A DNA stretch of 64,000 nucleotides, from NCBI GenBank assembly GCA_016715325.1, contig JADKAL010000005.1, positions 124,001 to 188,000 on the forward strand, in the 5' to 3' direction. Under the pieces are notes generated by a model, which saw only the letters and a list, made by a program, of their open reading frames with translations, did no database searches and was not told the origin of the DNA. Position 1 is the first letter of the stretch. Each line of letters starts with the position of its first letter. The position numbers and the translations under genes were made by a program. The DNA is from Methylococcaceae bacterium (GTDB lineage: Bacteria > Pseudomonadota > Gammaproteobacteria > Methylococcales > Methylomonadaceae). Positions 29,250-51,812 of the stretch are shown piece by piece.

Positions 29250-29760
29250 CGTTATTTTGTCTGTGGGATTGAGCAAAGGCAGGGTCGTCAATGATCCAGA
29301 CAGCATCGAACTCCCGCTTAATTACGATGACGATATTTGGAAAGGAAGAAGCTTTCTACTAAGCCTCCATCATAAATCAAGGCATATCCGGCAGTCTTAA
29401 TGTTTTTACGTCGACTATAGGTTTAATAAATCTGTAGAACCATTCCGCTGTTTTTCCCATTTTCAGCTCGGTTTAAGTTCTGTCGAATCAATTTGTTCCT
29501 CATTTCGGATACAAGATTTTGTAACCCGTCCTCATTACGCCTTCGCGATACGTCCCGTTTTCAATCATCCGTATACGTCAAATGACTGATGAGTTATCTG
29601 ACGGATTGTGCTTATTCCCCGCAAATTTAACAATGGTCTCCAAGCTTTCGATGGTCGTGCCATTGAAAAACTTAAAAAAATGAAAAGAAAAGGAACGGGC
29701 ATTTTTCTTGTTCCAAATCTTAATCCAAAACTTAAAGTTCATTGTTCAGGAGGTTGACGA
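29250..29760. other. Regulatory region upstream of fmdA
   Basis: About 510 bp with no gene. It contains the dyad operator at 29576-29603 shared with the urea operon, and the fmdA ribosome site (CAGGAGGTTGACG) just before 29761. Confidence 0.5.
29576..29603 (+). promoter_or_regulatory. Four-half-site dyad operator, fmdA copy
   Basis: CGTCA-2-TGACT-4-AGTTA-2-TGACG: an outer and an inner inverted pair of GTCA/TGAC half-sites, 157 bp before fmdA. The wider 37-bp block 29575-29611 matches 43001-43037 at 32 of 37 positions, including the trailing ATTGTGC. The regulator is unknown. Confidence 0.65.
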
Positions 29761-30984
29761 ATGAAAACGCTGATTAAGTTAGATCTTGACAAAAAGCCGT
29801 GGGAGCAGGACGGCTTGATCCATAACCGCTGGCATCCCGATTTGCCGATGGTGGCAATGGTAAAGCCCGGCGACGAGTTCCGGGTTGAATGTATGGATTG
29901 GACCGGCGGTCAGATAGGTAATAACGATAGTGCGAATGACGTACGCGATGTCGATTTAACCCAAGTACATTATCTCAGCGGTCCAATCGGTGTCGAGGGC
30001 GCGGAGCCGGGCGATTTGATGGTTGTGGATATTCTGGATGTCGGTACCTTCGATGAATATCAATGGGGGTTTAACGGGTTGTTCGCCAAAGAAAACGGCG
30101 GCGGCTTTTTGACCGACCATTACCCTGAAGCGCGTAAATCCATTTGGGATTTCCACGGGATTTATACGACCTCCAGGCATGTACCCCGAGTTAAATTCGC
30201 CGGTATCATGCATCCGGGTTTGATCGGCTGTCTTCCATCAAGAGAATTGCTGGAAAACTGGAATAAACGTGAAGCCGAACTGATTGCAACCGATCCGGAC
30301 CGCGTTCCTGCGTTAGCGTTACCGCCTAATCCGCAATCTGCAGTAATGGGCAAGCTGACCGGCGATGCCGCCAAGGCTGCCGCCGCCGAAGGAGCGCGAA
30401 CCGTTCCGCCGCGCGATCACGGCGGTAACTGCGACATTAAAAACCTTACCAAAGGATCGAAAGTCTTTTTCCCTGTATATGTTAAGGATGGCGGCCTGTC
30501 GATGGGCGACCTGCATTTTTCCCAAGGCGATGGTGAAATTACCTTTTGCGGCGCGATCGAAATGGCCGGTTATCTCGATATCAAAGTCAGTTTGATAAAA
30601 GACGGCGTCAAAAAATACGGCATTAAAAATCCTATCTTCCAACCCAGTCCGCTTACGCCTTCATACCGGGATTACCTTATTTTCGAAGGTATTTCTGTGG
30701 ATGAGCAAGGCAAACAGCATTATCTCGATGTTCATGTGGCTTATCGTCAAGCCTGTCTCAATGCAATCGAATATCTAAAGAAATTCGGTTACAGCGGCGC
30801 GCAAGCGCTTTCCATTCTGGGTACGGCTCCGGTCGAAGGCCATATCAGCGGTATCGTCGATATTCCCAATGCCTGCGCAACGCTATGGCTACCGACGGAA
30901 ATTTTCGATTTCGATTTAAAACCCAATGAAGGAGGCCCGATCAAGGTAATAACAGGTGATGTCGATACGGCCGTTGCCACATAA
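29761..30984 (+). CDS. fmdA: Formamidase
   Basis: 407 aa, full family length. Seen: MKTLIKLDLDKKPWEQ start, HNRWHPDLPMV, GGQIGNNDSANDV, the SGPIGVEGAEPGDL strand and RDHGGNCDIKNL, all typical of FmdA acetamidase/formamidase. Hydrolyses formamide to formate and ammonia in the cytoplasm; formate can feed C1 metabolism. Strong AGGAGG ribosome site. First gene of fmdA-fmdB-urtABCDE. Confidence 0.95.
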   Translation: MKTLIKLDLDKKPWEQDGLIHNRWHPDLPMVAMVKPGDEFRVECMDWTGGQIGNNDSANDVRDVDLTQVHYLSGPIGVEGAEPGDLMVVDILDVGTFDEYQWGFNGLFAKENGGGFLTDHYPEARKSIWDFHGIYTTSRHVPRVKFAGIMHPGLIGCLPSRELLENWNKREAELIATDPDRVPALALPPNPQSAVMGKLTGDAAKAAAAEGARTVPPRDHGGNCDIKNLTKGSKVFFPVYVKDGGLSMGDLHFSQGDGEITFCGAIEMAGYLDIKVSLIKDGVKKYGIKNPIFQPSPLTPSYRDYLIFEGISVDEQGKQHYLDVHVAYRQACLNAIEYLKKFGYSGAQALSILGTAPVEGHISGIVDIPNACATLWLPTEIFDFDLKPNEGGPIKVITGDVDTAVAT

Positions 30985-31010
30985 TCCTATCGACTTAAGG
31001 AGCGCGGATT

Positions 31011-31376
31011 ATGCCACTTTACGACTATCAATGTGAAACTTGCGGGCCTTTTTCAGCTATGAAAAAGATGACCGAATCCGGTCTTGCTGCCGCTTGCGGA
31101 AACTGCGGCAGCATGAGTGAACGGGTTATTTCGGTACCTTATTTTGCGCTGCTGACCAAAGCCAAACGATCGGCCTACGAACGCAACGAAAAATCCGCGC
31201 ATGAGCCGAAAGCCGTACGTCGATCCAGTTGCGGTTGCTCAGGTGCACATACTTGTCACCCCAAATCTTCTGAAACAACCATAGCTAAGGAGAATAAGAC
31301 TCAGTCAAATCAACAGGCAGGCGGTTTTCAAATGCAAACCAAGAGAACCGCACGTCCCTGGATGTTAGGTCATTAA
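31011..31376 (+). CDS. fmdB: FmdB-type zinc-ribbon protein
   Basis: 121 aa. Seen: MPLYDYQCETCG start with CxxC pairs at about 8-11 and 29-32 forming the FmdB zinc ribbon, then a Cys/His-rich tail (SSCGCSGAHTCHP). Known: FmdB was proposed as a regulator of formamidase in Methylophilus. Lies between fmdA and the transporter genes. Confidence 0.9.
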   Translation: MPLYDYQCETCGPFSAMKKMTESGLAAACGNCGSMSERVISVPYFALLTKAKRSAYERNEKSAHEPKAVRRSSCGCSGAHTCHPKSSETTIAKENKTQSNQQAGGFQMQTKRTARPWMLGH

Positions 31377-31408
31377 ACCATTGATGTTTTTTACTACTGG
31401 AGAAAAAA

Positions 31409-32647
31409 ATGAGTAAGTTAAATCGAAGTCAGCCCTTAAAAAAGCTGTCTTTTCTGGCAACCGCTGTTGCTGTACTCGGCATAACGAGCGCCTATGCGGC
31501 GGATTATCCGACCGCAAAAGTCAATACGACCGGATTAGCGGTAACCGATTCAACGGTGACTGTCGGTATTTTACATTCGGCAACCGGCACGATGGCGATC
31601 AGTGAAACCGGCTCAATCCAAGCTGAAAAGCTCGCTATCGCCCAGATTAATGCGTTAGGTGGCGTACTCGGGAGAAAAATCGAGGTGATTCAGGAAGACG
31701 GTGCCAGCGATTGGCCGACCTTTGCGGAAAAATCCAAGAAATTACTGGAGAACGACAAGGTCGCTGCGGTAATGGGTTGTTGGACGTCCGCATCACGGAA
31801 AGCGGTGCTGCCGGTCTTTGAAAAAGATAACGGTTTATTGTTTTACCCCACTTTCTACGAAGGTTTGGAGCAATCTAAAAACGTTTTCTACACCGGGCAG
31901 GAAGCGACCCAGCAAATCCTTGCCGGTCTCGACTGGATAGCTAAAGAAAAGAAAGCGAAAACTTTTTACTTGATCGGTTCTGATTATATCTGGCCGCGCA
32001 CTTCAATGAAAATTGCCCGTAAGCATATCGAGCAACACTTAAAGGGTACCGTAGTCGGTGAAGAATATGTCGCGCTTGGCGATACGCAATTCGGTTCGGT
32101 AATTAACAAGATTAAACTGAAAAAGCCTGACGTCATCTACGCAGCGGTTGTCGGCGGCAGTAACGTCGCTTGGTTTAAACAGTTGAATGCAGCGGGACTA
32201 GACGCTAAAAAGCAAACCATGCTGACGATTTCGGTAACGGAAGATGAAGTGCTGGGTATCGGGGGCGAAAACCTCGAAGGTTTCTATTCCGCAATGAAAT
32301 ATTTCCAAAGCTTGAAAAACCCTAACAACGAGGCCTTTGTTGCCGAGTTCAAAAAAGCCTACGGCGAAGCGTCTGTCATCGGCGACGTCACGCAAGCGGC
32401 TTATCTGGGTCCGTGGTTATGGAAAGCCGGTGTCGAGAAGGCCGGCAGTTTCGATGTCGATAAAGTGGCTGCGGCATTGCCGGGCTACGAATTTACCGCT
32501 GCTCCCGAAGGTTATGTCAAAGTCGATCAAAACCATCACTTATGGAGCAAGCTACGTATCGGACAATGGCGTAAAGACGGTCAAGCCGATGTGGTTTACG
32601 AATCGGAACTGATAGCGCCGGATCCATTCCCTAAAGGTTATCAATAA
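31409..32647 (+). CDS. urtA: Amide/urea ABC transporter, substrate-binding protein
   Basis: 412 aa. Seen: signal peptide (FLATAVAVLGITSAYA), then the UrtA/FmdD pattern: VGILHSATGTMAISE, CWTSASRKAVLPVFE, LLFYPTFYEGLEQSKN and GSDYIWPRT. Binds urea or short-chain amides in the periplasm. Position after fmdAB suggests formamide/acetamide as main ligands, as for the Methylophilus amide-urea porter. It differs at several pocket-near positions from the second copy at 44416 (PTFYEGLEQ against PVQYEGEES). Confidence 0.92.
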   Translation: MSKLNRSQPLKKLSFLATAVAVLGITSAYAADYPTAKVNTTGLAVTDSTVTVGILHSATGTMAISETGSIQAEKLAIAQINALGGVLGRKIEVIQEDGASDWPTFAEKSKKLLENDKVAAVMGCWTSASRKAVLPVFEKDNGLLFYPTFYEGLEQSKNVFYTGQEATQQILAGLDWIAKEKKAKTFYLIGSDYIWPRTSMKIARKHIEQHLKGTVVGEEYVALGDTQFGSVINKIKLKKPDVIYAAVVGGSNVAWFKQLNAAGLDAKKQTMLTISVTEDEVLGIGGENLEGFYSAMKYFQSLKNPNNEAFVAEFKKAYGEASVIGDVTQAAYLGPWLWKAGVEKAGSFDVDKVAAALPGYEFTAAPEGYVKVDQNHHLWSKLRIGQWRKDGQADVVYESELIAPDPFPKGYQ

Positions 32648-32749
32648 GGTTTGAAGTTTGTGTAACGGCAACCGATTCTAAGTTGCCGTTACCTCGTTGA
32701 TGTCAAAGTGATTTTAAGTTAGTAAGCAATAGTCAAATGGAGACCGGTC

Positions 32750-33667
32750 ATGTTTGGATATACGATGACAGAAATAGGAAGTATTGTCGTAATGCAGGGA
32801 TTTGCCGGATTAAGCCTTTTCAGTGTGTTATTGCTGATGGCGCTGGGATTGGCCATTATTTTCGGACAAATGGGCGTTATTAATATGGCGCACGGTGAGT
32901 TTATGACCGTAGGCGCTTACACAACCGTCTTCATGTCGAAGGTAGCCGTGCAATACGGATGGGTAGGTTCCTATTTCATGTTCGCCATTATTACGGCATT
33001 TATTCTGGCCTTTTTCCTCGGCTATTTAGTCGAATATTTGATGATCCGGCATTTATATAAAAGGCCGTTAGATACCCTGCTGGCAACCTGGGGCTTAAGC
33101 TTAGTGATGCAGCAGATTTTTCGTTCGACCTTCGGGGCTAAAGAAGTGAGCGCCGATTTACCGGAATGGTTATTAGGTTCGTTCAAACCAACGCCGGATA
33201 TCGATATTCCCATTAACGGGGTATTAGTCATGGGCTTATCGTTGATCGTGACGGTGAGCGTGTATTTATATTTGTATCGTTCCAGAGGCGGATTAAGGAT
33301 ACGGGCAACGATGCAGAACAGGATTATGGCGGGTGCGGTCGGGATTAATACAAAAAAAGTGGATAGATTCACTTTTGCTTTAGGTTGCGGTATTGCCGGA
33401 GTGGCAGGAGCAGCCTTTACTACCATCGCATCGACAGGTCCGACGACAGGCTCCCTTTATATTGTCGATAGTTTTATGGTCGTTGTGTTCGGCGGTGCCG
33501 CCAGTTTATTCGGCACGATTGCTTCGGCATTCGGTATTGCGCAAGCCCAATCGATCCTCCAGTTTTTTATGACCAGCTCGATGGGCAAGGTATCTACCCT
33601 AATGGTCATTGTGGTTATATTGATGATGCGTCCAGAAGGCTTGTTTGCATCGAAAGTAAGAAAATAG
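32750..33667 (+). CDS. urtB: Amide/urea ABC transporter permease UrtB-type
   Basis: 305 aa, all membrane. Seen: GLAIIFGQMGVINMAHGEFM, RPLDTLLATWGLSL, MVVVFGGAASLFG and the terminal RPEGLFASKVRK. Lacks the roughly 230-residue periplasmic N-terminal extension carried by the paralogue at 46075. Pairs with the UrtC-type permease encoded 9 bp later. Confidence 0.92.
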   Translation: MFGYTMTEIGSIVVMQGFAGLSLFSVLLLMALGLAIIFGQMGVINMAHGEFMTVGAYTTVFMSKVAVQYGWVGSYFMFAIITAFILAFFLGYLVEYLMIRHLYKRPLDTLLATWGLSLVMQQIFRSTFGAKEVSADLPEWLLGSFKPTPDIDIPINGVLVMGLSLIVTVSVYLYLYRSRGGLRIRATMQNRIMAGAVGINTKKVDRFTFALGCGIAGVAGAAFTTIASTGPTTGSLYIVDSFMVVVFGGAASLFGTIASAFGIAQAQSILQFFMTSSMGKVSTLMVIVVILMMRPEGLFASKVRK

Positions 33668-33676
33668 GAGCAAGTT

Positions 33677-34822
33677 ATGCACGTAATATCGGAAAAATTA
33701 CTGGGTGGCAAACAAGGCGCTGTTAACTTGTTGATTTTGGCGTTACTCTTATTTGTTATCTTTCCCTTGTGGCTGGATTTGTTCCGGCTGAACCTGTTAG
33801 GCAAATATGTAACATACGCCTATGTCGCAGTCGGTTTGGTCCTATTGTGGGGGAATGGCGGGATTTTAAGCTTAGGACAAGGCATCTTTTTCGGACTCGG
33901 CGGCTATTGCATGGCGATGTTTCTGAAACTGGAAGCCTCCGATCCGGTCAGCACCAAAATCCAGACCACACCCGGCATTCCGGATTTTATGGATTGGAAT
34001 CAAATTACGGAAATACCGTTTTTTTGGGAACCCTTCAAAAGCTTACCTTTAACGCTACTGTTGATATTGCTCGTGCCGACTTTCTTGGCCTTGATTATCG
34101 GTTTCGCCATGTTTAAAAGAAGGGTAGGGGGCGTTTATTTCTCCATTATTACGCAAGCGATTGCGCTTATTTTGAGTATCCTGATTGTCGGTCAGCAGGG
34201 TTATACCGGCGGCGTTAACGGAATTACAGACCTGAGAACCTTACTCGGCTGGGACATTCGTACGGACGGCGCAAAATACTTACTTTATTATATCAATGCC
34301 GGATTATTGATACTTTGCATCCTTCTTTCCCGGTATATCTTAACTTCCAAATTCGGCATGTTGCTGTTGGCGATGCGGGATAAGGAAGAGCGCGTTCGTT
34401 TTTCCGGCTACGACGTGTCTAATTTCAAGATCTTCATATTTTGCATTGCCGCCATGATTTCCGCCGTCGGCGGTGCGATGTTTACTTTACAAGTCGGCTT
34501 CATGTCGCCGAGTTTCGTCGGCATCGTTCCTTCAATCGAAATGGTCATTTTTGCTGCAGTCGGCGGCCGTATGTCGCTGATCGGCGCAGTCTACGGTACA
34601 TTATTGGTTAATTTCGGCAAAACCATGTTCTCGGAAACTTATCCCGAATTGTGGCTATTCTTGATGGGCGGCTTATTTATAGCTGTCGTTATGTTCTTCC
34701 CTGACGGCTTGGCGGGTGTTTACGACAAATACGCCACACGGTTCAACCTAGCGGGGCGTATTGCCAAAGTGATCCAGAAAATCAGCAAAAAAGCTTTGAA
34801 GACAGTGGGAGAAGAAGCATGA
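33677..34822 (+). CDS. urtC: Amide/urea ABC transporter permease UrtC-type
   Basis: 381 aa. Seen: about ten transmembrane helices, LWGNGGILSLGQGIFFGLGG near residue 55, the large loop with VYFSIITQAIALIL, and the C-terminal YPELWLFLMGGLFIAVVMFFPDGLAG. Its last codons overlap the urtD start by 4 bp. This intact copy is the yardstick for the interrupted urtC at 47721. Confidence 0.92.
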   Translation: MHVISEKLLGGKQGAVNLLILALLLFVIFPLWLDLFRLNLLGKYVTYAYVAVGLVLLWGNGGILSLGQGIFFGLGGYCMAMFLKLEASDPVSTKIQTTPGIPDFMDWNQITEIPFFWEPFKSLPLTLLLILLVPTFLALIIGFAMFKRRVGGVYFSIITQAIALILSILIVGQQGYTGGVNGITDLRTLLGWDIRTDGAKYLLYYINAGLLILCILLSRYILTSKFGMLLLAMRDKEERVRFSGYDVSNFKIFIFCIAAMISAVGGAMFTLQVGFMSPSFVGIVPSIEMVIFAAVGGRMSLIGAVYGTLLVNFGKTMFSETYPELWLFLMGGLFIAVVMFFPDGLAGVYDKYATRFNLAGRIAKVIQKISKKALKTVGEEA

Positions 34823-35562
34823 GCAATACCGATTATCTTTTGGCGATTGAAGATTTAACGGTTTCCTTCGACGGCTTTAAAGCGGTCGATGCCTTGTCCA
34901 TGTACATCGATAACAATGAGTTACGTGTTGTTATCGGCCCAAACGGTGCGGGTAAAACGACCGTATTAGATTTAATTTGCGGAAAAACCAAATCGACATC
35001 CGGCTCGATTAAGTTCAAGAATAAGGAACTTACCAAATTAGCCGAACATGAAATCGTTCGTGCGGGCGTGGGCCGCAAATTTCAAACACCGTCCATCTAT
35101 GAAAACCTATCCGTGTACCAAAACCTGGAAGTATCTTATCCCGTCGGCCGTTCGGTGTGGGGTAGTTTAACGTTCAAACGTACACCGGAGCTAGCGGAAC
35201 GCGTCAACCGAATTGCTGCCGAAGTTTTACTAACCGACCAGCTCCAAATGGAAGCCGCATTGCTCAGCCACGGCCAGAAACAATGGCTGGAGATCGGGAT
35301 GTTACTGATGCAAGACCCCGAACTGTTAATGCTGGACGAACCGGTTGCCGGTATGAGCGCTAAAGAACGCGACCAAACCGCAGAATTACTGAACAGGATC
35401 AGCCAAAACCGTTCGGTATTGGTGATCGAGCATGACATGGAATTTGTGAAAAAGATCGCGCATAAAGTTACGGTGTTACATCAAGGCAAAATTCTGGCCG
35501 AGGGTTCAATGGACAAAATTCAGCTTGATGAAAAAGTTATCGAAGTCTATTTAGGCCATTAA
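34819..35562 (+). CDS. urtD: Amide/urea ABC transporter ATPase UrtD
   Basis: 247 aa. Seen: Walker A GPNGAGKTT (about 41-49), signature LSHGQKQWLEIGMLL with the family-specific 'HGQKQ', Walker B LLMLDEPVAGM and switch His in VIEHDMEFV. Cytoplasmic ATPase that pairs with UrtE to power uptake. Confidence 0.94.
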   Translation: MSNTDYLLAIEDLTVSFDGFKAVDALSMYIDNNELRVVIGPNGAGKTTVLDLICGKTKSTSGSIKFKNKELTKLAEHEIVRAGVGRKFQTPSIYENLSVYQNLEVSYPVGRSVWGSLTFKRTPELAERVNRIAAEVLLTDQLQMEAALLSHGQKQWLEIGMLLMQDPELLMLDEPVAGMSAKERDQTAELLNRISQNRSVLVIEHDMEFVKKIAHKVTVLHQGKILAEGSMDKIQLDEKVIEVYLGH

Positions 35563-35609
35563 TATCGACGAGTTATCGCCGGGGAAACGATCCCGCATAA
35601 AGGAGAACA

Positions 35610-36305
35610 ATGAACATGTTTGAAGTTACCGATTTACAAGTCAGTTACGGACAAAGCCAGGTTATTCACGGCGTTAGTTTTAAAGCGGAAAAAAACGAGA
35701 CGGTTGCCATTATGGGACGTAACGGCATGGGTAAAACCACGTTATTCAAATCGCTGATGGGTATCTTGCCGAGCAAGGCTGCCAAAGCCGAAGTAGACGG
35801 CGAAAACCTTAATGGGGCGGAAACCTACCAACGCGTCGCCAAGGGTTTGGCTTATGTACCGCAAGGGCGGATGATTTTCCCGACCATGACCGTGCAGGAA
35901 AATATCGAAACCGGCTTGCAAAACACCAAGTCGAATATCATTCCCAGCGATATCTTTGCCTTGTTTCCCGTTTTGTACGATATGCGCAAACGTAAAGGCG
36001 GCAATCTGTCCGGCGGCCAGCAGCAGCAATTGGCGATTGCCCGGGCGTTGGTCACCAATCCGAAAGTCTTGTTACTTGACGAACCGACCGAAGGCATCCA
36101 GCCGTCCATCATCAAAGATATTGCCAAGGTATTGAACGAAATCCGCAAAATGCGGGAAATTACTATTATCGTCTCCGAGCAGGTATTGAGTTTTACGATG
36201 GATATCGCCGACCGCATTATCGTCATCGACAAAGGCAATTTTATCCACGAAGATAAACGCGATGCCGTCGATGCGGAAAAGATTAAGGGGTATTTATCGG
36301 TTTAA
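35610..36305 (+). CDS. urtE: Amide/urea ABC transporter ATPase UrtE
   Basis: 231 aa, ATG at 35610 after AAAGGAGAACA. Seen: Walker A GRNGMGKTT, signature LSGGQQQQLAIARAL, Walker B LLLDEPTEGIQPS, switch region VSEQVLSF. The final 75 codons and about 100 bp downstream are duplicated at 38001-38330 on the far side of the HD-GYP gene. Confidence 0.94.
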   Translation: MNMFEVTDLQVSYGQSQVIHGVSFKAEKNETVAIMGRNGMGKTTLFKSLMGILPSKAAKAEVDGENLNGAETYQRVAKGLAYVPQGRMIFPTMTVQENIETGLQNTKSNIIPSDIFALFPVLYDMRKRKGGNLSGGQQQQLAIARALVTNPKVLLLDEPTEGIQPSIIKDIAKVLNEIRKMREITIIVSEQVLSFTMDIADRIIVIDKGNFIHEDKRDAVDAEKIKGYLSV

Positions 36306-36335
36306 TATCGATTTTGGTCGTCACAGCAAAGCGTG

Positions 36336-36375
36336 TTGCGCCGTGTGAAATTTTAAGATTCGGCGCAATGCTTTT
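36336..36375 (+). terminator. Probable terminator of fmdA-urtE operon
   Basis: TTGCGCCG and CGGCGCAA form an 8-bp GC-rich stem with a 17-nt loop, followed by TGCTTTTT, 30 bp after the urtE stop. The downstream duplicate retains only half of the stem. Confidence 0.6.
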
Positions 36376-36494
36376 TAGTTATTGCGCCTTACGGCCTTAA
36401 GCGCGGTCAAACGTCAATACAAGTGGTAGCACGAAACCTGTCCTATGAAAATATAGGAGGGTTTACCTGTTGACATCAGCACATCGTGACTCAA

Positions 36495-37841
36495 TCAGCC
36501 AGGGAAAAGCTCTGGGTTATTTTTAATAATGTTTTTAAGGCTTGCAAAACAATTTGCATCAATTGCTGTTCCTACGCTCTCTTCCATAATGACCAAAGTT
36601 TTATCCACAGGGATAGCGCCACGATAAGGGCGTTCTGCAGTAATGGCATCAAAAATATCGGCGGTAGTAATAATCCGAGTTTCCAAGACAATATCAGTTG
36701 CTGTTAATCCACGAGGATAACCGCCGCCATCAAGGCGTTCATGGTGCGCAGCCGATACACGTGCTAGCTCATCAAAACTACTAATGCGCCCTAAAATGGA
36801 TTCCGTAAATTGGGCATGGCGTTTAACTGCCGCCCACTCGATCTCATCTAGTTTCCCCGGTTTGTCGAGAATACTGTTACTTACACCGAGTTTGCCAACA
36901 TCGTGCAACAAAGCGCCACGTTTAAGCCAGCGTCTTCGTGCTTCCGGGATTTCCATCGACTCAGCCAGCAAGGAAGTGTACAGGCCAACCCTGGCGCTAT
37001 GCCCTGCGGTATACGGGCTTTTTGCATCTACCACTTTACCGAAGGCTTCAGCAATATCGTCAAAATAATCCTCGTCCAATTGGACTTTATGATCTCCTGG
37101 TTCAAGGGCAAATATACGGGGTTCGACCTCGGCTGAATTCAATATCGACCAAAAATCGGGTGATTGTGAAACTTCGGTAAAAGTCTCTACTAACTCAGGG
37201 TCAAACCAAGACCCACTTCGGTTTCTAGCTTCTGCTATCGCTGCCAATTGACCGTTTGTATTGTTTACCACATCTATCACCTGAGCCAATAGTGCAATCC
37301 GCGAGTAAAGTGGTATGCTCGAACCTTGTAATCCTTCGGGGCGACCTTGACCATTCCAGTGTTCATCCAAACAATGAATGCCTTGCGCTACACCCTCGGA
37401 AAACCGTAACTGTCGGGCGATATCCGCCCCCCGTGTACATCGGGTTTGAATAAGTTCTTGAGCAATTTCCTCGCCATTTTGCAATATAGTTCCCAAGGCT
37501 TTAAGGCGATCTAACAAGCCGGAGTTGGGTCCAGTGTGGCGTAAAATAAAACGCAAAACTTGCGGCAAACTTCCATCCACCCACTTAAAGTCACGCTTAA
37601 AACTTAAGTCATCAGTCAGATAAAGTTCGCATATACGTGACGCATTGCTACTACAACCCAAGTCTTTGAGCAATAGCGTGTAATACAACTCCCACAATTG
37701 AGCCGAGGACATCCCGATTTTTTCGCCAATATGCATGCCAATCCAACAACAACGGACGCAATGACCTTCAGGTTGTCCTTCGGTTATGTCGAGGGCATGG
37801 CTTAATGCGCCGATGAGTTCGGATAGTTTTAATTCTGGCAT
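36495..37841 (-). CDS. Tandem HD-GYP phosphohydrolase
   Basis: 448 aa. Seen: C-terminal HD-GYP domain with HSARVG, LLHDVGKLG, HAQFTE and AAHHERLDGGGYP, all metal and substrate residues present, so cyclic-di-GMP hydrolysis is expected. The N-terminal half repeats the layout in weakened form (HCVRCCWIG, LLKDLGCSS, HWNGQGRP), a degenerate HD domain. No sensor or transmembrane segment. The gene lies opposite to its neighbours, between urtE and a duplicated urtE fragment. Confidence 0.88.
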   Translation of the reverse strand: MPELKLSELIGALSHALDITEGQPEGHCVRCCWIGMHIGEKIGMSSAQLWELYYTLLLKDLGCSSNASRICELYLTDDLSFKRDFKWVDGSLPQVLRFILRHTGPNSGLLDRLKALGTILQNGEEIAQELIQTRCTRGADIARQLRFSEGVAQGIHCLDEHWNGQGRPEGLQGSSIPLYSRIALLAQVIDVVNNTNGQLAAIAEARNRSGSWFDPELVETFTEVSQSPDFWSILNSAEVEPRIFALEPGDHKVQLDEDYFDDIAEAFGKVVDAKSPYTAGHSARVGLYTSLLAESMEIPEARRRWLKRGALLHDVGKLGVSNSILDKPGKLDEIEWAAVKRHAQFTESILGRISSFDELARVSAAHHERLDGGGYPRGLTATDIVLETRIITTADIFDAITAERPYRGAIPVDKTLVIMEESVGTAIDANCFASLKNIIKNNPELFPG

Positions 37842-38000
37842 CAGATGTTTTAATTAATCTCTACTAAAAAATTGACTTAAAGTGTAGTCCCTATCGTTCT
37901 CAACTCATAATACCCAAACGAATTTATGATACAAATATCGTCAATATTCAGCGCTAACGATGTGCCTCGTTCATCGGCGTTTCCTATAAATGCAACTTAT

Positions 38001-38235
38001 GGACTTAGACGAACCGACCGAAGGCATTCAAACATCCATCATTAAAGATATTGCCAAGGTATTGAACGAAATATGCAAAATGCGGGAGATTACCATAATC
38101 GTCTCCGAACAGGTGTTGAGTTTTACGATGGACATCGCCGACCGCATCATCGTCATCGATAAAGGCAGTTTTATCCACGAAGACAAACGCGATGCCGTTG
38201 ATGCCGAAAAGATTAAGGGGTATTTGTCGGTTTAA
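38001..38235 (+). pseudogene. Duplicated 3' fragment of urtE
   Basis: Begins at the Walker B region (LDEPTEGIQTS) and runs in frame to the same stop as urtE at 36305 (IKGYLSV). About 20 of 225 bases differ, roughly 90% identity, mostly at third positions, and similarity continues about 100 bp past the stop. No Walker A or signature motif, so it cannot be a working ATPase. A remnant of duplication, old enough to have diverged while keeping the frame. Confidence 0.85.
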
Positions 38236-38511
38236 TATCGATTTTGGTCGTAATAGCAAAGCGTATTGGCGACGAATCAAATGCCAAAATTCGGCGCAAT
38301 GCCTTTTCGTTGTTGTGTTTAAAGGCTGTGATTATTAATAAATTATAGAAATAATGGTTTAATATAGGATGTGCCGAGGTACGAGGGGCACTTGTACCCT
38401 TTGGGTATCTGTAGAGAAAAATACCCTCGCGAACTATACGTCTCCCTTGGTTCGGATCATCCTATAAGCGCATCTTTTGGATTTACTTAGTAAGACGGCT
38501 CGAACGAGGAG
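38236..38511. other. Tail of duplicated segment and spacer
   Basis: Until about 38330 this is a diverged copy of the region after urtE. Then AT-rich spacer with the palindrome TTGTACCCTTTGGGTA at 38391, also found in the MITE-like copy at 14035. No gene seen. Confidence 0.5.
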
Positions 38512-39113
38512 TTAGAGCTTACTCGAAATCGCCGCTAGCACCTTTGGATCATTTGCCATCCGATGGAATTCATCCTCGAAGGCCTGCAAGCCTGTTGGGG
38601 CGTTTATGGTCATTGTGAGCGTATAACTCCCACTTAAACCGGGTGAAGATACAAGGGTGTCGAACTCAATCGTAAGTCGCCTGAGCTCGCTACGCATCTC
38701 AGTTGTCCAACCGGACATCTTAGAGAACAGTTCCGCAAAAGCTTCGTGCGGACGAACGAATCGAACATCCAGTTCCCACTCGAAGAGCGTCAGAAAAAGC
38801 GCGTACAAATTGTCGCACGCTGCTTTGATCTTCTCGGCGTCGCCAGGAACACCGGTCGGACCGAATGAAGGGGTTAACTGCTTGAGAAGAACCTTTGATA
38901 CTGCTTGAGTGGTGTTCACCAAGTCATTAAGCAGATCATGTATGTAGTTCAGTGTATCTGGTCCGGGCAAGAACCTTGTCCGGCGAACAACAAATCCAGA
39001 CTCGAGTTCCGCGAATCGCTCTTCGATTCTTCGTGATCGATCATTCAAAAGAGCGCATGCGAGTCTATATTCCCATAGTTCATCTTTGTCTACAGCTATA
39101 CGAGTGATATGGC
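38512..39113 (-). pseudogene. DUF4062 protein gene, 3' part, cut by IS insertion
   Basis: Open frame of about 200 codons running into the right-hand edge of the IS (39114-39115 is the TA target). It reads HITRIAVDKDELWEYRLACA and then helical, charged sequence (RRIEERFAELESGF...) with no known motif. Joined to the 5' part at 41355-41916 over one TA, the frame is unbroken and gives 387 aa. A TTG at 39048 could start a shorter product, but that is unlikely to be native. Confidence 0.8.
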
Positions 39114-39711
39114 TAGTGTAACGTCCTCAACAAACATTAAGATATGATACAATTGGTGTCCATGAGAACGCCAATGAAAATTACACTGATTGAAGAGGAT
39201 CGAACAGAACTGGAACGCTGGGTGAAGAGCCGGTCTGTTGGGGCTAAACAAAGACTACGGGCTAGAATGGTACTGATGACCGCCGAGGGCTTGTCAACAA
39301 CGGTCATTATGGCAACGTTGGGGTCAGCAACCCGACCTTGAACAAGTGGCGGAATCGCTATCTCGAAAGTGGTGTTGAAGGGCTCAAGAAAGGCAAGACC
39401 CGCCCGTCGCGGATACCGCCGCTGCCGACTGACAAAGTCCAAGAAGTCCTGGCCTTGACATTGACCGGTAAACCGGCTGCCGCGACGCAGTGGAGTTGCC
39501 GGACGATGGCGGAGCAGGTCGGCATTTCCGGATGGCGGTGCACGGCATCTGGCGGGAGCACAAACTGAAGCCCCATCAGAGTGAAGGGCTTTAAGGTTTC
39601 GAACGACCCGCTGTTCGCCGAAAAGTTGCGCGATGTCGTGGGCCTTTACCTGGACCCACCGGAGAAGGCCATCGTGTTTTCCGTCGACGAGAAAAGCCAA
39701 ATCAGGCGCTA

Positions 39712-40835
39712 GTGTAACGTCCTCAACAAACATTAAGATATGATACAATTGGTGTCCATGAGAACGCCAATGAAAATTACACTGATTGAAGAGGATCGAA
39801 CAGAACTGGAACGCTGGGTGAAGAGCCGGTCTGTTGGGGCTAAACAAAGACTACGGGCTAGAATGGTACTGATGACCGCCGAGGGCTTGTCAACAACGGT
39901 CATTATGGCAACGTTGGGGGTCAGCAACCCGACCTTGAACAAGTGGCGGAATCGCTATCTCGAAAGTGGTGTTGAAGGGCTCAAGAAAGGCAAGACCCGC
40001 CCGTCGCGGATACCGCCGCTGCCGACTGACAAAGTCCAAGAAGTCCTGGCCTTGACATTGACCGGTAAACCGGCTGCCGCGACGCAGTGGAGTTGCCGGA
40101 CGATGGCGGAGCAGGTCGGCATTTCCCGGATGGCGGTGCACGGCATCTGGCGGGAGCACAAACTGAAGCCCCATCAAGTGAAGGGCTTTAAGGTTTCGAA
40201 CGACCCGCTGTTCGCCGAAAAGTTGCGCGATGTCGTGGGCCTTTACCTGGACCCACCGGAGAAGGCCATCGTGTTTTCCGTCGACGAGAAAAAGCCAAAT
40301 CCAGGCGCTAGATCGTAGCCAACCCGGCCTGCCGATGAAGCCGGGAAAATGCGGGACGATGACGCACGATTATAAGCGACATGGCACCACAACTTTGTTT
40401 GCGGCACTCGACGTGCAGACCGGAACGGTGATTGGGCAATGCCAGCCCAGGCACCGCCACGACGAGTTCCTCAAGTTCCTGAAGACAATTGACCGGCGAA
40501 CCGACAAAACCTTGGCATTGCATTTGATCGTCGACAACTATGCGACGCACAAACATGCCGAAGTAAAGGACTGGCTGGCCCAGCATCCCCGGTTCCACTT
40601 ACACTTCACGCCAACCTCGGCCTCATGGCTCAACTTAGTCGAGCGTTTCTTCCGGGACATTACCGAGGAACGTATCCGGCGTGGTGTTTTCCACAGTGTT
40701 GACGACCTCAAAACAGCGATACAGGAGTATCTCGACCACCGCAATAGCAACCCAAAACCTTACCATTGGACAGCCAAACCAGAGACGATCTTGGCTAAAG
40801 TAGACAAAGCTAAAGATATGTTGAGGACGTTACAC
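39712..40835 (+). mobile_element. IS630-family element, inner nested copy
   Basis: 1124 bp with terminal inverted repeats GTGTAACGTCCTCAAC / GTTGAGGACGTTACAC, flanked by TA (39710-39711 and 40836-40837). The target is the CTAG in the transposase gene of the outer copy, matching the known CTAG/TA preference of IS630. Confidence 0.92.
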
Positions 40836-40838
40836 TAG
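39740..40838 (+). pseudogene. IS630 transposase, inner copy, one-base frameshift
   Basis: N-terminal part has helix-turn-helix segments (AEGLSTTVIMATLGVSNP, MAEQVGISRMAVHG). The first catalytic Asp is in VFSVDEK; then an A5 run (40289-40293) throws the frame. With A4, as in the outer copy, it reads [18 protein letters not shown] and continues through [11 protein letters not shown] (second Asp) to [13 protein letters not shown] (Glu), about 365 aa. The TAG stop uses the target-site TA plus the following G. Either a mutation, a sequencing error, or, less likely, a frameshift site. Confidence 0.85.
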
Positions 40839-41356
40839 ATCGTAGCCAACCCGGCCTGCCGATGAAGCCGGGAAAATGCGGGACGATGACGCACGATTAT
40901 AAGCGACATGGCACCACAACTTTGTTTGCGGCACTCGACGCAGACCGGAACGGTGATTGGGCAATGCCAGCCCAGGCACCGCCACGACGAAGTTCCTCAA
41001 GTTCCTGAAGACAATTGACCGGCGAACCGACAAAACCTTGGCATTGCATTTTGATCGTCGACAACTATGCGACGCACAAACATGCCGAAGTAAAGGACTG
41101 GCTGGCCCATCCCCAGTTCCACTTACGCCGCCAACCTCGGCCTCATGGCTCAACTTAGTCGAGCGTTTCTTCCGGGACATTACCGAGGAACGTATCCGGC
41201 GTGGTGTTTTCCACAGTGTTGACGACTCAAAACAGCGATACAGGAGTATCTCGACCACCGCAATAGCAACCCAAAACCTTACCATTGGACAGCCAAACCA
41301 GAGACGATCTTGGCTAAAGTAGACAAAGCTAAAGATATGTTGAGGACGTTACACTA

Positions 41357-41916
41357 GGTTCGGTAGCAAAGGCTGAAGGAACGACAAGTCGGTTCTTCCT
41401 TGAACGAGCCAAGAGATCGCGAAATCGAGTTGAGAGTTGAATTCGCAGTGTCGTTAGTATGTCTTCCGTACGAGTGAATGGGAACACCCATTTCGTGTCT
41501 TTAACGATTTGCTCAATGAATGAAAAGACCGCTGGGTTGTCGACGGTCGGTGCAAGATCAACTTCCTTGTTCTTTTGATAGATAGGCAATAGGTCTAAAA
41601 CCTGTTTGTCAACGAAGACTATGCAGTCTAGCCCAGTGAGCCGGGCTTCTTGGTACTCGCTGTTTACCACGGACTTCTTAGTCAATGGATCAAGCGAGCC
41701 TCGTTTGCCTCCGACGATCAGTACGAGGAGATCTGCACGTTCCCTCACGACTCGCTTGCAGTTCTCGACGGTCGAAAGTTCCGGCGATACGGGAAAAGAT
41801 GGATACTCACTGAGGACGGGGTCGTGGCCCCACGATTCGATCTCCGAACGCAAGTGCTCCCGAAGCGACTTCAGGTCGTAGCAAGTAGAACTAACGAAGA
41901 GTGAGAGTCGATGCAT
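41357..41916 (-). pseudogene. DUF4062 protein gene, 5' part, cut by IS insertion
   Basis: Begins MHRLSLFVSSTCYDLKSLRE and runs to EPS, where the IS starts; as read it continues a few codons into the IS and stops at 41329. Seen: the DUF4062 N-terminal Rossmann-like pattern (FVSSTCYDLK, an ERADLLVLIVGGKRG turn, NSEYQEARLTG). Known: DUF4062 proteins are TIR-like and often act in defence or signalling. Native length with the 3' part is 387 aa. Inactivated here unless the IS excises. Confidence 0.82.
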
Positions 41917-42118
41917 TCGTGGTGCCTAACAAATTGACTAGCCCCAAATAAAAAATTAATTTTTATCCGGGCAGGTTGTTAATTTCATACGTCTAAATAT
42001 AGTCCATTCATTATCAATAACAAAGCTTTCCTAATTACACCTGATTTCGGTTAATTTAAGCGATCAAACGCACCATAATGTTTGGCTTGTGGGTTTTATC
42101 GACATTATCACTCACCGA

Positions 42119-42919
42119 TTATCGCCGCTCATACCCAAATTCCAAGATAACAGGCGAACCCTGGTTATGGATGATAATTTGCCGTCTGGGTTCGTCGCGC
42201 TGGATTCTGACTTTCGGTTCTTCTGGGTTGGCATTTTTATCCGATTCAGGTTTTTTAACTTCCTGTTCCGATGTTGTGGTTGAAGATGTGGACGGCGGCG
42301 ACATCGGGGTTGTGATCGGATCGTCCGTCGTCATTTTGTCTTCAATGCGGATTTCAGGTATCCAACCGGGCGATGTAATGGCGCCGCCTTGGTCTGCCGG
42401 TTTTTCTTTTAGCGGCCATTTGACTTCGGTGAGTAAATTAAAACACACCGTACCGATGTGGTCGGCTAATTTATCCGCCGCCAAATAGGCTTTATCGCTT
42501 TTGTCGGCCATAAAATCCATGCTGAGTTCGCTGGCTTGTTCTGGATGAAGGCTGGATTTTAGAAGACATTTGATCGGTAAAACGTCCATTTTTTGAAATT
42601 CCAACGACCGGGGGTCGGAATTTCCCGCCGAGTAGGAAAACCCGGCGGGCGACGATCCTTTTGTCACTGTGCCGACCGTTGCTATTAATAGATGACTTAC
42701 CTTTGGGTTCGGACTTATCACAACCGGATAGTCCCAGTGCTTCAGATTGTTCGCAACCGTTTGGGCGACGGTGTCGAGCTGCACAGTGTTGTCGTTAGCA
42801 TCGACATGGAGTTCGATTTCACCGGGATTGCTTAAATCCATCGCTAGCTGTGTTTTTACCGGTTGTTTGGCGCAGGCCGCGAGGCTCAAGGCTGCCAAAA
42901 AACAGAGCTGTTTAGTCAT
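42119..42919 (-). CDS. Hypothetical lipoprotein
   Basis: 266 aa. Seen: lipoprotein signal (LCFLAALSLAAC, lipid Cys about 16), a globular part (about 30-170), a Pro/Ser/Thr-rich linker (about 200-230), and a basic terminal strand (RRQIIIHNQGSPVILEFGYERR). No family recognised. Probably outer-membrane anchored and periplasmic. Divergent from the porin-urea operon, sharing the 220-bp region that holds the dyad operator, so it may be co-regulated. Confidence 0.6.
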   Translation of the reverse strand: MTKQLCFLAALSLAACAKQPVKTQLAMDLSNPGEIELHVDANDNTVQLDTVAQTVANNLKHWDYPVVISPNPKVSHLLIATVGTVTKGSSPAGFSYSAGNSDPRSLEFQKMDVLPIKCLLKSSLHPEQASELSMDFMADKSDKAYLAADKLADHIGTVCFNLLTEVKWPLKEKPADQGGAITSPGWIPEIRIEDKMTTDDPITTPMSPPSTSSTTTSEQEVKKPESDKNANPEEPKVRIQRDEPRRQIIIHNQGSPVILEFGYERR

Positions 42920-43001
42920 CGTTTTTGTTTGTTTTTTTCATGTCGATTCAGAAGGTTTTTATCAATTTTAACACTAATCGAGCGATGGATTAGTTGATAT
43001 A

Positions 43002-43029
43002 CGTCATTTGACTGATGAGTCATTTGACG
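43002..43029 (+). promoter_or_regulatory. Four-half-site dyad operator, urea operon copy
   Basis: CGTCA-TT-TGACT-GATG-AGTCA-TT-TGACG. Inner and outer arms are both perfect inverted pairs. It lies 111 bp before the porin gene and 82 bp before the divergent lipoprotein gene. The flanking 37-bp block matches the one before fmdA at 32 of 37 positions. Confidence 0.7.
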
Positions 43030-43140
43030 CATTGTGCAAAATCCGTCCAACCAAAATAATCCCCATCAAGCCTGCTTCCGGCTCATTCGGTCTTGCCGAA
43101 TGCTTCAAAAATTTATTTGTTATAACTTGGGGAAAATGAA

Positions 43141-44382
43141 ATGATGAAATCTCAACAGAAAAACCAAGGTAAAAGCTTAAAACATCGGCTTTTACCTTTG
43201 GCGTTGTTACCCTTTGCCGCTATTCATGCGCCGTCGATACAGGCCGGCGCGACTTTTAAAATCGACGATACCAAATGGGTGAGTATCGGTGCGGGGTTGC
43301 GTACCAGTTTCGAATCGGTTGAGGACGGCGCAGGCACGCCGGGCAATAGTCAATGGACGAATGATTTTAAACTGGATAACGTCCGTTTATATGTCAACGG
43401 ACAAATCCACAAATACTTGAAAGTCGAGTTGAATACCGAATGCCAAACCTGCGGCAGCGGCGGCGAAGTCCGGGTTTTGGATGCTATCGGTAAGTTTGAA
43501 TACAACTCGTACGCCAATGTTTGGGCAGGCCGATTGCTCGTTCCGGCTGAACGCCGGGAGTTGAACGGTCCGTTTTACAGTCCTATTTTTAATGTGTTTG
43601 CGTCAGGCACCCCATTTGAGCCTTCCGATTACAATATTCTTATCAAATCCGACGGTACGTCTGCCGGTGCTATCGGTCGTGACGAGGGTGCTGTTTTTTG
43701 GGGTGCTGCGTTTAACGATAGATTGCAATACTCCTTCGGCTTTTTCCGCGGTTTACGAGGCGGTGCTAACGTAGACGATAATATTCTTTACGCACAACGG
43801 CTTTCGTATAACTTCTGGGAGGTTGAAAAAAATCCTGGGTACTACACCTCCGGTACTTACTACGGAAAAGGCGGCGATATTTTAACGGTTGCAGTTTCCA
43901 ACCAATACCAGGAAGACGGGGCGGGTACTGCGTCTGATCCGGGTACATTCCGCGGCACTACCTTCGATGTGTTGTTGGAAAAAGTGTTGCCGAATAGCGG
44001 CGTAGTCACCATGAACGGTGAATACAAAAACTACGGCATCGGTAATGGTTATAGCCAAGCGACGCGCGATGCCTTTCCTACTGAAGGATTTTCGATGTTT
44101 GAAGGGAATGCCTACGACGTCAGTGCGATGTATCTTTTCCCTCAAAAAATCGGTATCGGTCAGTTCCAACCCTACGTTCGATATGTGAACGTGTTGCCTA
44201 GCACGAGTACCAACCGCAATTCCTACGAAGGAGGCGTGAATTATGTCATAGACGGACATAATGCGCGGGTGTCACTTAGCTGGACTTACGGCGATTTGTT
44301 AACCAAAGGTCTGGACTATAGTTCAACGGCGGCAGGCGATAGCATTAACGCCATTAAACTAGGCTTTCAATGGCAAATTTAA
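43141..44382 (+). CDS. Outer-membrane porin of the urea operon
   Basis: 413 aa. Seen: signal peptide (LLPLALLPFAAIHAPSIQA), a barrel of alternating strands with many aromatic residues, a Cys pair (ECQTCGSGG) in an early loop and a final strand INAIKLGFQWQI. Placed 33 bp ahead of urtA, so inferred to let urea (or amides) through the outer membrane. Family resembles phosphate-selective/short-chain-amide porins. GGGGAAA precedes the ATG pair at 43141/43144. Confidence 0.82.
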   Translation: MMKSQQKNQGKSLKHRLLPLALLPFAAIHAPSIQAGATFKIDDTKWVSIGAGLRTSFESVEDGAGTPGNSQWTNDFKLDNVRLYVNGQIHKYLKVELNTECQTCGSGGEVRVLDAIGKFEYNSYANVWAGRLLVPAERRELNGPFYSPIFNVFASGTPFEPSDYNILIKSDGTSAGAIGRDEGAVFWGAAFNDRLQYSFGFFRGLRGGANVDDNILYAQRLSYNFWEVEKNPGYYTSGTYYGKGGDILTVAVSNQYQEDGAGTASDPGTFRGTTFDVLLEKVLPNSGVVTMNGEYKNYGIGNGYSQATRDAFPTEGFSMFEGNAYDVSAMYLFPQKIGIGQFQPYVRYVNVLPSTSTNRNSYEGGVNYVIDGHNARVSLSWTYGDLLTKGLDYSSTAAGDSINAIKLGFQWQI

Positions 44383-44415: not shown

Positions 44416-45711
44416 ATGAATAAACAATTTTTTGATTTGAGACTCTGGTTTTGGTGTTTTGTATTTACCTTTGGTCTTAGCAGTGTATCTCGTGCCGAAG
44501 ACACCATCAAAGTCGGCGTATTGCATTCTTTATCGGGCACGATGGCGATCAGCGAAACCACGCTGAAAGACACCATGCTGATGTTGATCGACGAGCAGAA
44601 CAAGAAAGGCGGTTTGCTCGGCAAAAAATTGGAAGCGGTGGTCGTCGATCCTGCTTCCAACTGGCCGTTGTTTGCGGAAAAAGCGCGTGAATTATTGACT
44701 AAAGACAAGGTGGCTGCTGTGTTCGGCTGCTGGACATCCGTGTCGCGTAAGTCGGTCTTGCCGGTTTTTGAAGAGCTGAACGGACTGTTGTTCTACCCGG
44801 TGCAATACGAGGGTGAAGAGTCGTCTAAAAACGTATTCTACACCGGCGCAGCGCCGAATCAGCAAGCCATTCCGGCCGTCGATTATTTGATGAACGACCT
44901 TAAGGTGAAACGTTGGGTGTTGGCAGGTACCGATTATGTGTATCCACGTACCACCAATAAAATCCTTGAAGCTTACCTGAAAGCGAAAGGCGTGGCCAAG
45001 AAAGACATCATGATCAACTATACACCGTTCGGTCATTCCGATTGGCAAAGTATCGTCGCCGACATCAAGAAATTCGGCTCAACCGGAAAGAAAACCGCTG
45101 TTGTTTCTACAATTAACGGCGATGCCAACGTGCCGTTCTACAAAGAATTGGGCAACCAAGGACTCAAAGCGGAAGATATTCCGGTTGTTGCTTTCTCTGT
45201 GGGTGAAGAAGAGTTGTCCGGCATCGACACCAAGCCCTTGGTCGGTCACTTAGCTGCTTGGAACTACTTCATGAGCATGGATACCACCAAAAACGCGGCT
45301 TTCATCAAGCAATGGCAGGATTTCATCAAGAATCCGAAACGCGTCACCAACGACCCGATGGAAGCGCATTACATCGGCTTCAACATGTGGGTGAAAGCGG
45401 TTGAGAAAGCCGGTTCTACCGATCCAGCCAAAGTTCAGGAAGCCATCATCGGCGTGGAATTTCCTAACTTGACCGGCGGTACGGCCAAGATGCTGCCTAA
45501 TCATCACATCAGCAAGCCGGTATTGATCGGCGAAATTCAAGACGACGGGCAGTTTACGACCGTTTGGCAAACCAATAAGGTTGTCGACGGCGATGCCTGG
45601 TCGGATTTCTTGCCGGAAAGTAAACCGATTATTGCCGATTGGACAGCGCCAATCAGTTGCGGCAACTACAACACGAAAACCAAGAAGTGTTCAGGCCAAA
45701 ACTATAAGTAG
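44416..45711 (+). CDS. urtA: Urea ABC transporter, substrate-binding protein
   Basis: 431 aa. Seen: signal peptide (WFWCFVFTFGLSSVSRA), VGVLHSLSGTMAISE, CWTSVSRKSVLPVFE, LLFYPVQYEGEESSKN and GTDYVYPRTTN, the classical urea-specific UrtA pattern. Periplasmic urea capture. A 14-bp hairpin sits immediately after the stop codon, probably to stabilise this abundant message. Confidence 0.94.
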   Translation: MNKQFFDLRLWFWCFVFTFGLSSVSRAEDTIKVGVLHSLSGTMAISETTLKDTMLMLIDEQNKKGGLLGKKLEAVVVDPASNWPLFAEKARELLTKDKVAAVFGCWTSVSRKSVLPVFEELNGLLFYPVQYEGEESSKNVFYTGAAPNQQAIPAVDYLMNDLKVKRWVLAGTDYVYPRTTNKILEAYLKAKGVAKKDIMINYTPFGHSDWQSIVADIKKFGSTGKKTAVVSTINGDANVPFYKELGNQGLKAEDIPVVAFSVGEEELSGIDTKPLVGHLAAWNYFMSMDTTKNAAFIKQWQDFIKNPKRVTNDPMEAHYIGFNMWVKAVEKAGSTDPAKVQEAIIGVEFPNLTGGTAKMLPNHHISKPVLIGEIQDDGQFTTVWQTNKVVDGDAWSDFLPESKPIIADWTAPISCGNYNTKTKKCSGQNYK

Positions 45712-45717
45712 TTGAGT

Positions 45718-45753
45718 CAGGTGGTATTAGGTTGTTCGGCCTAATCCCACCTG
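45718..45753 (+). other. Hairpin after urtA (attenuator/stabiliser)
   Basis: CAGGTGG-T-ATTAGG pairs with CCTAAT-C-CCACCTG (13 of 14 pairs) around an 8-nt loop, 6 bp after the urtA stop. Followed by TATTATT, not a solid U tract. Probable partial terminator or 3' stabiliser that sets urtA expression above urtBCDE. Confidence 0.65.
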
Positions 45754-45756
45754 TAT

Positions 45757-45872: not shown

Positions 45873-45900
45873 TTGAAATTTACCAAAGGAAGCAGTGAAA

Positions 45901-46020: not shown

Positions 46021-46074
46021 ACTTATTCAAAGCTTCTCTATCAACACTTTATTAACAAGGACTTTACTGACGAT

Positions 46075-47718: not shown

Positions 47719-47720
47719 AA

Positions 47721-50370: not shown

Positions 50371-50381
50371 GAGAAATGATT

Positions 50382-50960: not shown

Positions 50961-50962
50961 TC

Positions 50963-51802: not shown

Positions 51803-51812
51803 AGATAACATC

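What the first reader, a model, noticed from the sequence alone, without database searches (positions are those of the whole stretch)
29575..43037. Same four-half-site operator before the formamidase and urea operons
29575-29611 and 43001-43037 agree at 32 of 37 positions and share CGTCA-TGACT-AGT(C/T)A-TGACG with equal spacing (2-4-2). They lie 157 bp and 111 bp before fmdA and the porin gene, the only two nitrogen-amide operons here. The elements are 13 kb apart in otherwise unrelated intergenic sequence, so conservation suggests one shared, unidentified regulator.
Basis: seen in the sequence. Interest (0 to 1): 0.8.

Follow-up and report, generated by a model that had tools for sequence, protein, structure and literature searches.

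The report
Urea and formamide operon control switch
Two matching DNA switches in a methane-eating bacterium sit just before its formamide and urea operons, and comparison with hundreds of genomes points to one overlooked sensor-and-regulator pair that probably turns both on.

Summary
Observation confirmed: 29575-29611 and 43001-43037 agree at 32 of 37 positions; no other such site in the window. The four half-sites are two abutting NarL-style 7-2-7 inverted repeats (TACGTCA-NN-TGACTGA, TGAGTYA-NN-TGACGNA). The shared ATTGTGC contains a -35 box (TTGTGC), with a -10 (AANAAT) 17 nt on. At the urea site a divergent -10 (TANNNT) lies the same 25 nt from the other operator edge.
An exact scan of about 85,000 genomes gave 64 stretches; 55 lie before the porin or fmdA gene.
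In relatives the divergent side encodes a lipoprotein, a transporter-domain hybrid histidine kinase and a NarL/LuxR response regulator. Site and kinase co-occur in 108 of 311 Methylococcales genomes; site alone in 4, kinase alone in 50. In 274 Gammaproteobacteria the exact single 7-2-7 occurs in 4, all among the 15 with the kinase; a reversed control pattern also hits 4, none with the kinase.
Best reading: the operator of this uncharacterised two-component system, activating amide and urea uptake operons and its own genes. Kinase and regulator are absent from the window. Binding, activation and ligand are untested.

The parts
29574..29589 (+). distal 7-2-7 unit of the fmdA operator (TACGTCA-AA-TGACTGA)
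29590..29605 (+). proximal 7-2-7 unit of the fmdA operator (TGAGTTA-TC-TGACGGA), abutting the -35
29606..29611 (+). predicted -35 box TTGTGC of the fmdA promoter
   Evidence: TTG at this offset in 57 of 57 target-side flanks
29629..29634 (+). predicted -10 box AACAAT of the fmdA promoter
   Evidence: AA[TCA]AAT at 25 or 26 nt from the operator edge in 55 of 57
29761..30984 (+). fmdA, formamidase (FmdA_AmdA); first gene of the target operon
31011..36305 (+). rest of the amide operon: FmdB-like zinc ribbon, UrtA-type binding protein, two permeases, two ATPases
42119..42919 (-). 266-aa lipoprotein-like protein without Pfam or NCBIfam family (P0001; lipoprotein judged by eye); in relatives it stands before the kinase and regulator genes
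42971..42976 (-). predicted -10 (TAGTGT) of the divergent lipoprotein promoter, 25 nt from the operator edge
   Evidence: TANNNT exactly there in 46 of 49 lipoprotein/kinase sides
43000..43015 (+). distal 7-2-7 unit of the urea operator (TACGTCA-TT-TGACTGA)
43016..43031 (+). proximal 7-2-7 unit of the urea operator (TGAGTCA-TT-TGACGCA)
43032..43037 (+). predicted -35 box TTGTGC of the porin promoter
43055..43060 (+). predicted -10 box AATAAT of the porin promoter
43141..44382 (+). porin gene (ExtI-type match below its curated cut-off; FmdC-like by context), first gene of the urea operon
44416..54145 (+). urea operon genes tested: UrtA, two permeases, two ATPases, HupE/UreJ, UreD, UreC (51803-52441 and beyond 54145 not tested)

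Best explanation
The element is the operator of a dedicated two-component system. A hybrid histidine kinase whose membrane part has the fold of an NCS1 (cytosine/hydantoin) transporter, followed by an eight-cysteine linker, phosphorylates a REC-LuxR(NarL/FixJ) response regulator. Regulator dimers bind 7-2-7 inverted repeats of TGACK. In many Methylococcales two units lie back to back (16-bp step) beside the -35 box, the proximal unit centred near -43.5, and activate the porin-urt-urease and fmdA amide operons. The same operator can face a second promoter, for the lipoprotein and the kinase and regulator genes behind it, so the system is probably autoregulated. Shown by sequence: the operator, its conserved geometry, gene association, co-occurrence and the sensor's predicted fold. 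Inferred: binding, activation rather than repression, and urea or short-chain amides as the signal. In this window the kinase and regulator are not present, so they would have to act from elsewhere in the genome.
Against: No binding, expression or TSS data. The kinase and regulator are absent from the window and no whole genome is held for it. In 50 of 158 kinase-positive genomes neither operator pattern was found; 12 of those 50 were read, 38 were not. The 88 genomes of the 2-mismatch search include chance hits: the reversed control hit 6 of 311. Genomes are related, so the Fisher p-value (1.4e-38) overstates independence. In the class search the reversed control hit as many genomes as the motif (4 of 274 each); only the placement of the four true hits speaks for them, and one of the four (G224) is itself a Methylococcales genome, so 3 of 3 lie outside the order. 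Of 14 outgroup or paralogous kinase loci read, 7 have no unit with up to 2 mismatches (L157, L159-L163, L165), and two further matches lie at unexpected places (L152:2968, L155:14275). In outgroups the -35/-10 geometry is not clear. Site and kinase are on different contigs in 15 and more than 12 kb apart in 7 of 83 genomes. In the Methylomonas-type loci L110-L117 other reading frames stand between lipoprotein and kinase, so they are not always one operon. Two sides without a recognised divergent gene keep the -10 (L051, L057).
Confidence: 0.85

Rival explanations
1. Another, unlinked transcription factor (for example a global nitrogen regulator) binds the operator; the linked two-component system is a passenger regulated by it.
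For: The kinase lies on another contig or more than 12 kb from the site in 22 of 83 genomes; no binding data exist.
Against: Genomes carry few sites: 1-2 in 12 methanotrophs, at most 3 in the order search, unlike a global regulator. The motif stays with the kinase in other Gammaproteobacteria. The 7-2-7 form fits a NarL-type regulator.
Confidence: 0.08
2. The linked response regulator binds here but represses, being released on induction.
For: Nothing tested distinguishes sign; the palindrome lies close to both promoters.
Against: The site lies upstream of weak -35 boxes at about -51 to -36 rather than over -10/+1 (positions inferred), the place used by CrbR and NarL as activators.
Confidence: 0.06
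3. An RNA hairpin in the leaders (attenuator or riboswitch).
For: The palindrome folds as RNA, z -2.8 and -2.7 on the + strand.
Against: The conserved -35 and -10 lie downstream of the palindrome on both sides, so it would not be transcribed from either. No Rfam family matches there at gathering threshold. No terminator-like sites in the two stretches scanned.
Confidence: 0.01

Closest known systems
CrbS/CrbR two-component system and its ACTU motif (Pseudomonas; PMC5715377, passages read)
   Same: Hybrid kinase with a transporter domain, LuxR-family regulator, inverted repeat immediately before an RpoD promoter (-52 to -36) that is needed for activation, system controlling uptake and use of one nutrient.
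   Different: CrbS has an SLC5 domain and a STAC linker and controls acetate genes; here the fold is closest to NCS1 with an eight-cysteine linker, targets are urea and amide operons, and the site is often doubled and shared by divergent promoters. The ACTU consensus letters were not seen.
E. coli NarL 7-2-7 operators at yeaR and ogt (PMC7419079, passages read)
   Same: Two 7-mers in inverted repeat with 2-bp gap beside the -35; yeaR uses one, ogt two.
   Different: Half-site TGACK instead of the NarL heptamer (recalled as TACYYMT); two units abut, 16 bp between centres, instead of 33 bp (-44.5 and -77.5); no nitrate link.
EupR and its putative SSF-domain hybrid kinase (Chromohalobacter; PMC2964678, passages read)
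   Same: NarL/FixJ regulator with a transporter-domain hybrid kinase, controlling solute uptake.
   Different: Ectoine uptake; sodium/solute symporter domain plus PAS.
Methylophilus FmdC porin (title of Mills 1997 seen in the reference list, and two mentions in the text, of PMC5877670, passages read)
   Different: Regulator not named in what was read; this window is from another group.
Ectopseudomonas urtABCDE operon III next to a hybrid kinase and LuxR regulator (PMC13296017, passages read)
   Same: Gene neighbourhood of the same type.
   Different: No operator or regulation described in the passages.

Membership tests
NarL/FixJ-type 7-2-7 operator | two 7-bp half-sites, inverted, 2-bp gap | tested here: met
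NarL/FixJ-type 7-2-7 operator | unit just upstream of a sigma-70 -35 box | tested here: met
   Predicted promoters in Methylococcales; not clear in outgroups
NarL/FixJ-type 7-2-7 operator | bound by a phosphorylated NarL-type dimer | not testable with these tools
   needs footprinting
CrbS/R-like two-component system | hybrid kinase HisKA-HATPase-REC behind a transporter-like membrane domain | tested here: met
   in relatives; not encoded in the window
CrbS/R-like two-component system | membrane domain is SLC5 | tested here: inconclusive
CrbS/R-like two-component system | STAC linker | tested here: inconclusive
   No significant Pfam match in the linker; an invariant eight-cysteine stretch is there instead
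CrbS/R-like two-component system | REC-LuxR response regulator encoded with the kinase | tested here: met
   in relatives; not encoded in the window
Rfam riboswitch or leader RNA | match to a known family at the element | tested here: not met
   only RF02514 at 52592-52877 reached gathering in the window
NtrC/sigma-54 regulation | NtrC site and -24/-12 promoter | not tested
   no sigma-54 scan was run; the conserved boxes look sigma-70-like

The most novel reading that the evidence does not exclude
An old gammaproteobacterial urea/amide-sensing system: an NCS1-fold transceptor kinase with a cysteine-rich (metal- or redox-binding) linker reads urea or short-chain amides and, through a NarL-type regulator and a 7-2-7 operator, controls the whole uptake and hydrolysis route from outer-membrane porin to urease and formamidase. 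Methylococcales doubled the operator into a symmetric switch that drives two divergent promoters with identical geometry.
Probability: 0.45. Interest if true: 0.7.

Novelty: new variant of a known kind. Interest (0 to 1): 0.58.

Why it matters
It names a candidate regulator, its operator and its small regulon (usually 1-2 sites per genome) for organic-nitrogen uptake in methane-oxidising bacteria, and links it to the same gene arrangement in some other Gammaproteobacteria. A gene deletion and a footprint would settle it. The transporter-fold sensor offers a way to ask what such kinases sense, and the single and doubled operators form a natural series for studying how one regulator serves one or two promoters.

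Tried and rejected
Dispersed repeat or chance: rejected. Reversed-pattern controls: 1 of 14 genomes; 6 of 311 against 88 for the pattern (G008, G094, G125, G178, G225, G258); 1 of 311 against 92; 4 of 274 against 4 (G427, G443, G494, G565, none kinase-positive). RNA hairpin: rejected on promoter position. Viral contigs gave no match. Generic promoter and terminator scan: nothing useful. The first structure job, with 7 similar sequences, gave no usable model (mean pLDDT 44.5); the second, with 74 sequences, gave 79.9. Membrane part: the only PDB sequence match up to E 10 was an insignificant one to CRIPT, and Pfam matches were insignificant. Paper searches: their listings and the passages opened showed no description of this operator or regulator; only open-licence PMC papers are held and lists were capped, so this is no proof that none exists.

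Selection effect: the operator letters are invariant by construction, because the pattern demanded them; only flanks and the searches with mismatches test conservation. In one search three sides were dropped as truncated (L007 left, 195 bp; L015 left, 34 bp; L050 right, about 450 bp). Several loci come from one genome or contig (for example L022 and L024), so rows are not independent. In one search the start codons of L153 and L154 are uncertain: the sites there fall inside the longest reading frames, at their 5' ends.
Full report
WHAT IS THERE. With up to 3 mismatches the four-half-site pattern occurs only at these two places in the 64 kb and in none of 100 shuffles.

GENOME SCAN. An exact scan of 84,980 species genomes with CGTCANNTRACTNNNNAGTYANNTGACG gave 64 stretches. 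Five (L004, L010, L028, L054, L064: Cytophagales, Acetobacterium, an alphaproteobacterium, a Bacillota bacterium, Shewanella) lie in unrelated contexts with no flank conservation. The other 59: 52 before a homologue of the window's porin gene, 3 before fmdA, 2 before the kinase gene described below, 1 beside lipoprotein-kinase genes (L017), 1 with its target side cut off (L015). Of the 59, 55 bear Methylococcales names; L035, L038, L043 and L060 are only called Gammaproteobacteria or proteobacterium. In viral contigs there were none. Whole genomes of 12 such methanotrophs hold 1 or 2 sites each at up to 2 mismatches.

ANATOMY. Aligning the sites in the direction of the target gene and tabulating both flanks shows conserved letters that the search pattern did not demand. 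On the porin/fmdA side: TTG two bases after the operator in 57 of 57, and AA[TCA]AAT 25 or 26 nt after it in 55 of 57 (both counts include the window's two sites). On the other side, when a lipoprotein or kinase gene is divergent, TANNNT begins exactly 25 nt from the operator in 46 of 49; at the other offsets tested (15-44) it occurs in 0 to 3 of 49. Of 13 sides without such a gene 2 have it (p=5e-8), L051 and L057. Three truncated sides were left out. The window fits: the urea site has TAGTGT there and a divergent lipoprotein gene, the fmdA site has neither. So the element is an operator often shared by two divergent promoters with mirror-image geometry. The four half-sites resolve into two 16-bp 7-2-7 inverted repeats placed end to end. 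If transcription starts about 7 nt after the -10, the proximal unit spans about -51 to -36.

CO-OCCURRENCE. Among 311 Methylococcales genomes the kinase's membrane part is in 158 at E<=1e-30. The four-half-site pattern with up to 2 mismatches is in 88 (reversed control 6) and an exact three-half-site pattern in 92 (control 1). Taking either: both 108, site only 4 (G018, G194, G211, G261), kinase only 50, neither 149; for the three-half-site pattern alone 90 of 92 have the kinase. Relatedness makes the p-value (1.4e-38) too small, and a few of the 2-mismatch hits are chance. For 83 genomes with both places printed, the site is within 12 kb of the kinase in 61, on the same contig in 68, on another contig in 15. 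In G224 both printed kinase copies, and in G091 the one printed of two, are over a million bases from the site on the same contig, so the system could act in trans. The window needs that, since no kinase or regulator is encoded in it.

EXCEPTIONS EXPLAINED IN PART. Twenty kinase-positive genomes without a four-half-site match were read upstream of the kinase. Eight (L110-L117) have the operator with the porin-side outer half-site altered; these are among the three-half-site matches. The other twelve belong to the 50 kinase-only genomes and all have a 7-2-7 unit with at most 2 mismatches upstream of the lipoprotein or kinase gene; 0 to 12 of 200 shuffles of each region do as well (L126 the weakest). 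The printed stretches show single units in L122-L125 and L127-L129 (L123, L128, L129 read in full), a 27-bp doubled form in L118 with like pieces in L119-L121, and two degenerate units in L126 between a paralogous kinase (52%) and a gene for an amide-type binding protein. So the unit is the 7-2-7, and many Methylococcales have it doubled. The remaining 38 kinase-only genomes were not read.

OUTSIDE THE ORDER. In 274 genomes drawn from the class, the kinase's membrane part was found in 15, two of them Methylococcales genomes already known (G001, G224). The perfect unit TACGTCANNTGACGTA occurs in 4 of 274. The reversed control also hits 4 (G427, G443, G494, G565), so the number alone says nothing; but all 4 true hits are in kinase-positive genomes (hypergeometric 5.9e-6) and each stands before a porin or amide-transporter gene, while none of the control genomes has the kinase. 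One of the four is G224, at its paralogous kinase; three lie outside the order. Fifteen regions from these genomes were read, 14 of them kinase loci: [regulator-kinase] divergent from an fmd operon (L151, L155, L156, L163; binding-protein genes of L155 and L163 seen) or from porin or porin-urt (L152, L153, L154), porin-urt with an unlinked kinase (L158), and others with different neighbours. A unit with at most 2 mismatches stands between the divergent genes, or at their uncertain starts, in L151-L156, before the porin in L158, and next to the kinase start in L164; none in L157, L159-L163, L165 (7 of 14 kinase loci). Two more matches lie elsewhere (L152:2968, inside the kinase; L155:14275). 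Promoter boxes at the Methylococcales spacing are not evident in outgroups.

MECHANISM AND PRECEDENT. CrbR, a LuxR-family regulator with a transporter-fused hybrid kinase, needs an inverted repeat at -52 to -36 just before an RpoD promoter (PMC5715377, passages); NarL activates from a 7-2-7 beside the -35 at yeaR and from two sites at ogt (PMC7419079, passages); EupR is a similar regulator for ectoine uptake (PMC2964678, passages). A paper on Ectopseudomonas mentions a urea transporter operon next to a hybrid kinase and LuxR regulator; the passages seen do not describe its control (PMC13296017). [quoted passage not shown] The best explanation is therefore a two-component activator of amide and urea acquisition that probably also controls its own genes. 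Binding, sign of regulation and ligand remain to be tested.

Noticed in passing
window 39112-41357: Transposase-like reading frames (IS630 type by recall; no family search run) broken up among exact direct duplications (about 597-bp and 519-527-bp steps) between the amide and urea operons; may be an assembly artefact or nested insertion.
   Followed up: partly
window 36078-36338 and 38008-38268: The end of the last amide-transporter ATPase gene is duplicated (261 nt, 91% identical) 1.9 kb downstream, beyond an HD-domain gene (36495-37841).
   Followed up: no
window 52592-52877, minus strand: Rfam 5_ureB_sRNA match (108.7 bits) lies antisense inside ureC; probably conserved urease coding sequence, but an antisense RNA is not excluded.
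   Followed up: no
L018 kinase (L018:1648-5049:-), residues 510-547: Eight cysteines between the transporter-like domain and the kinase, invariant in 74 aligned homologues, with no significant Pfam match: a possible metal- or redox-binding linker.
   Followed up: partly
L017:2488-2515: In a sponge-symbiont methanotroph the same operator faces another gene on its other side (ATP-grasp-like by eye), with AACAAT at 25 nt but CTGTAG in place of the -35: a possible extra regulon member.
   Followed up: no
G125:C122:1453-1553, G147:C145:7560-7660, G153:C86: Some genomes have several operator-like sites: two 73 bp apart in G125 and G147, three spread over 17 kb of one contig in G153.
   Followed up: no
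L118-L121: Doubled operator with a 3-bp instead of 4-bp centre (27 bp in all; read in full only in L118), which would change the helical phase of the two dimers.
   Followed up: partly
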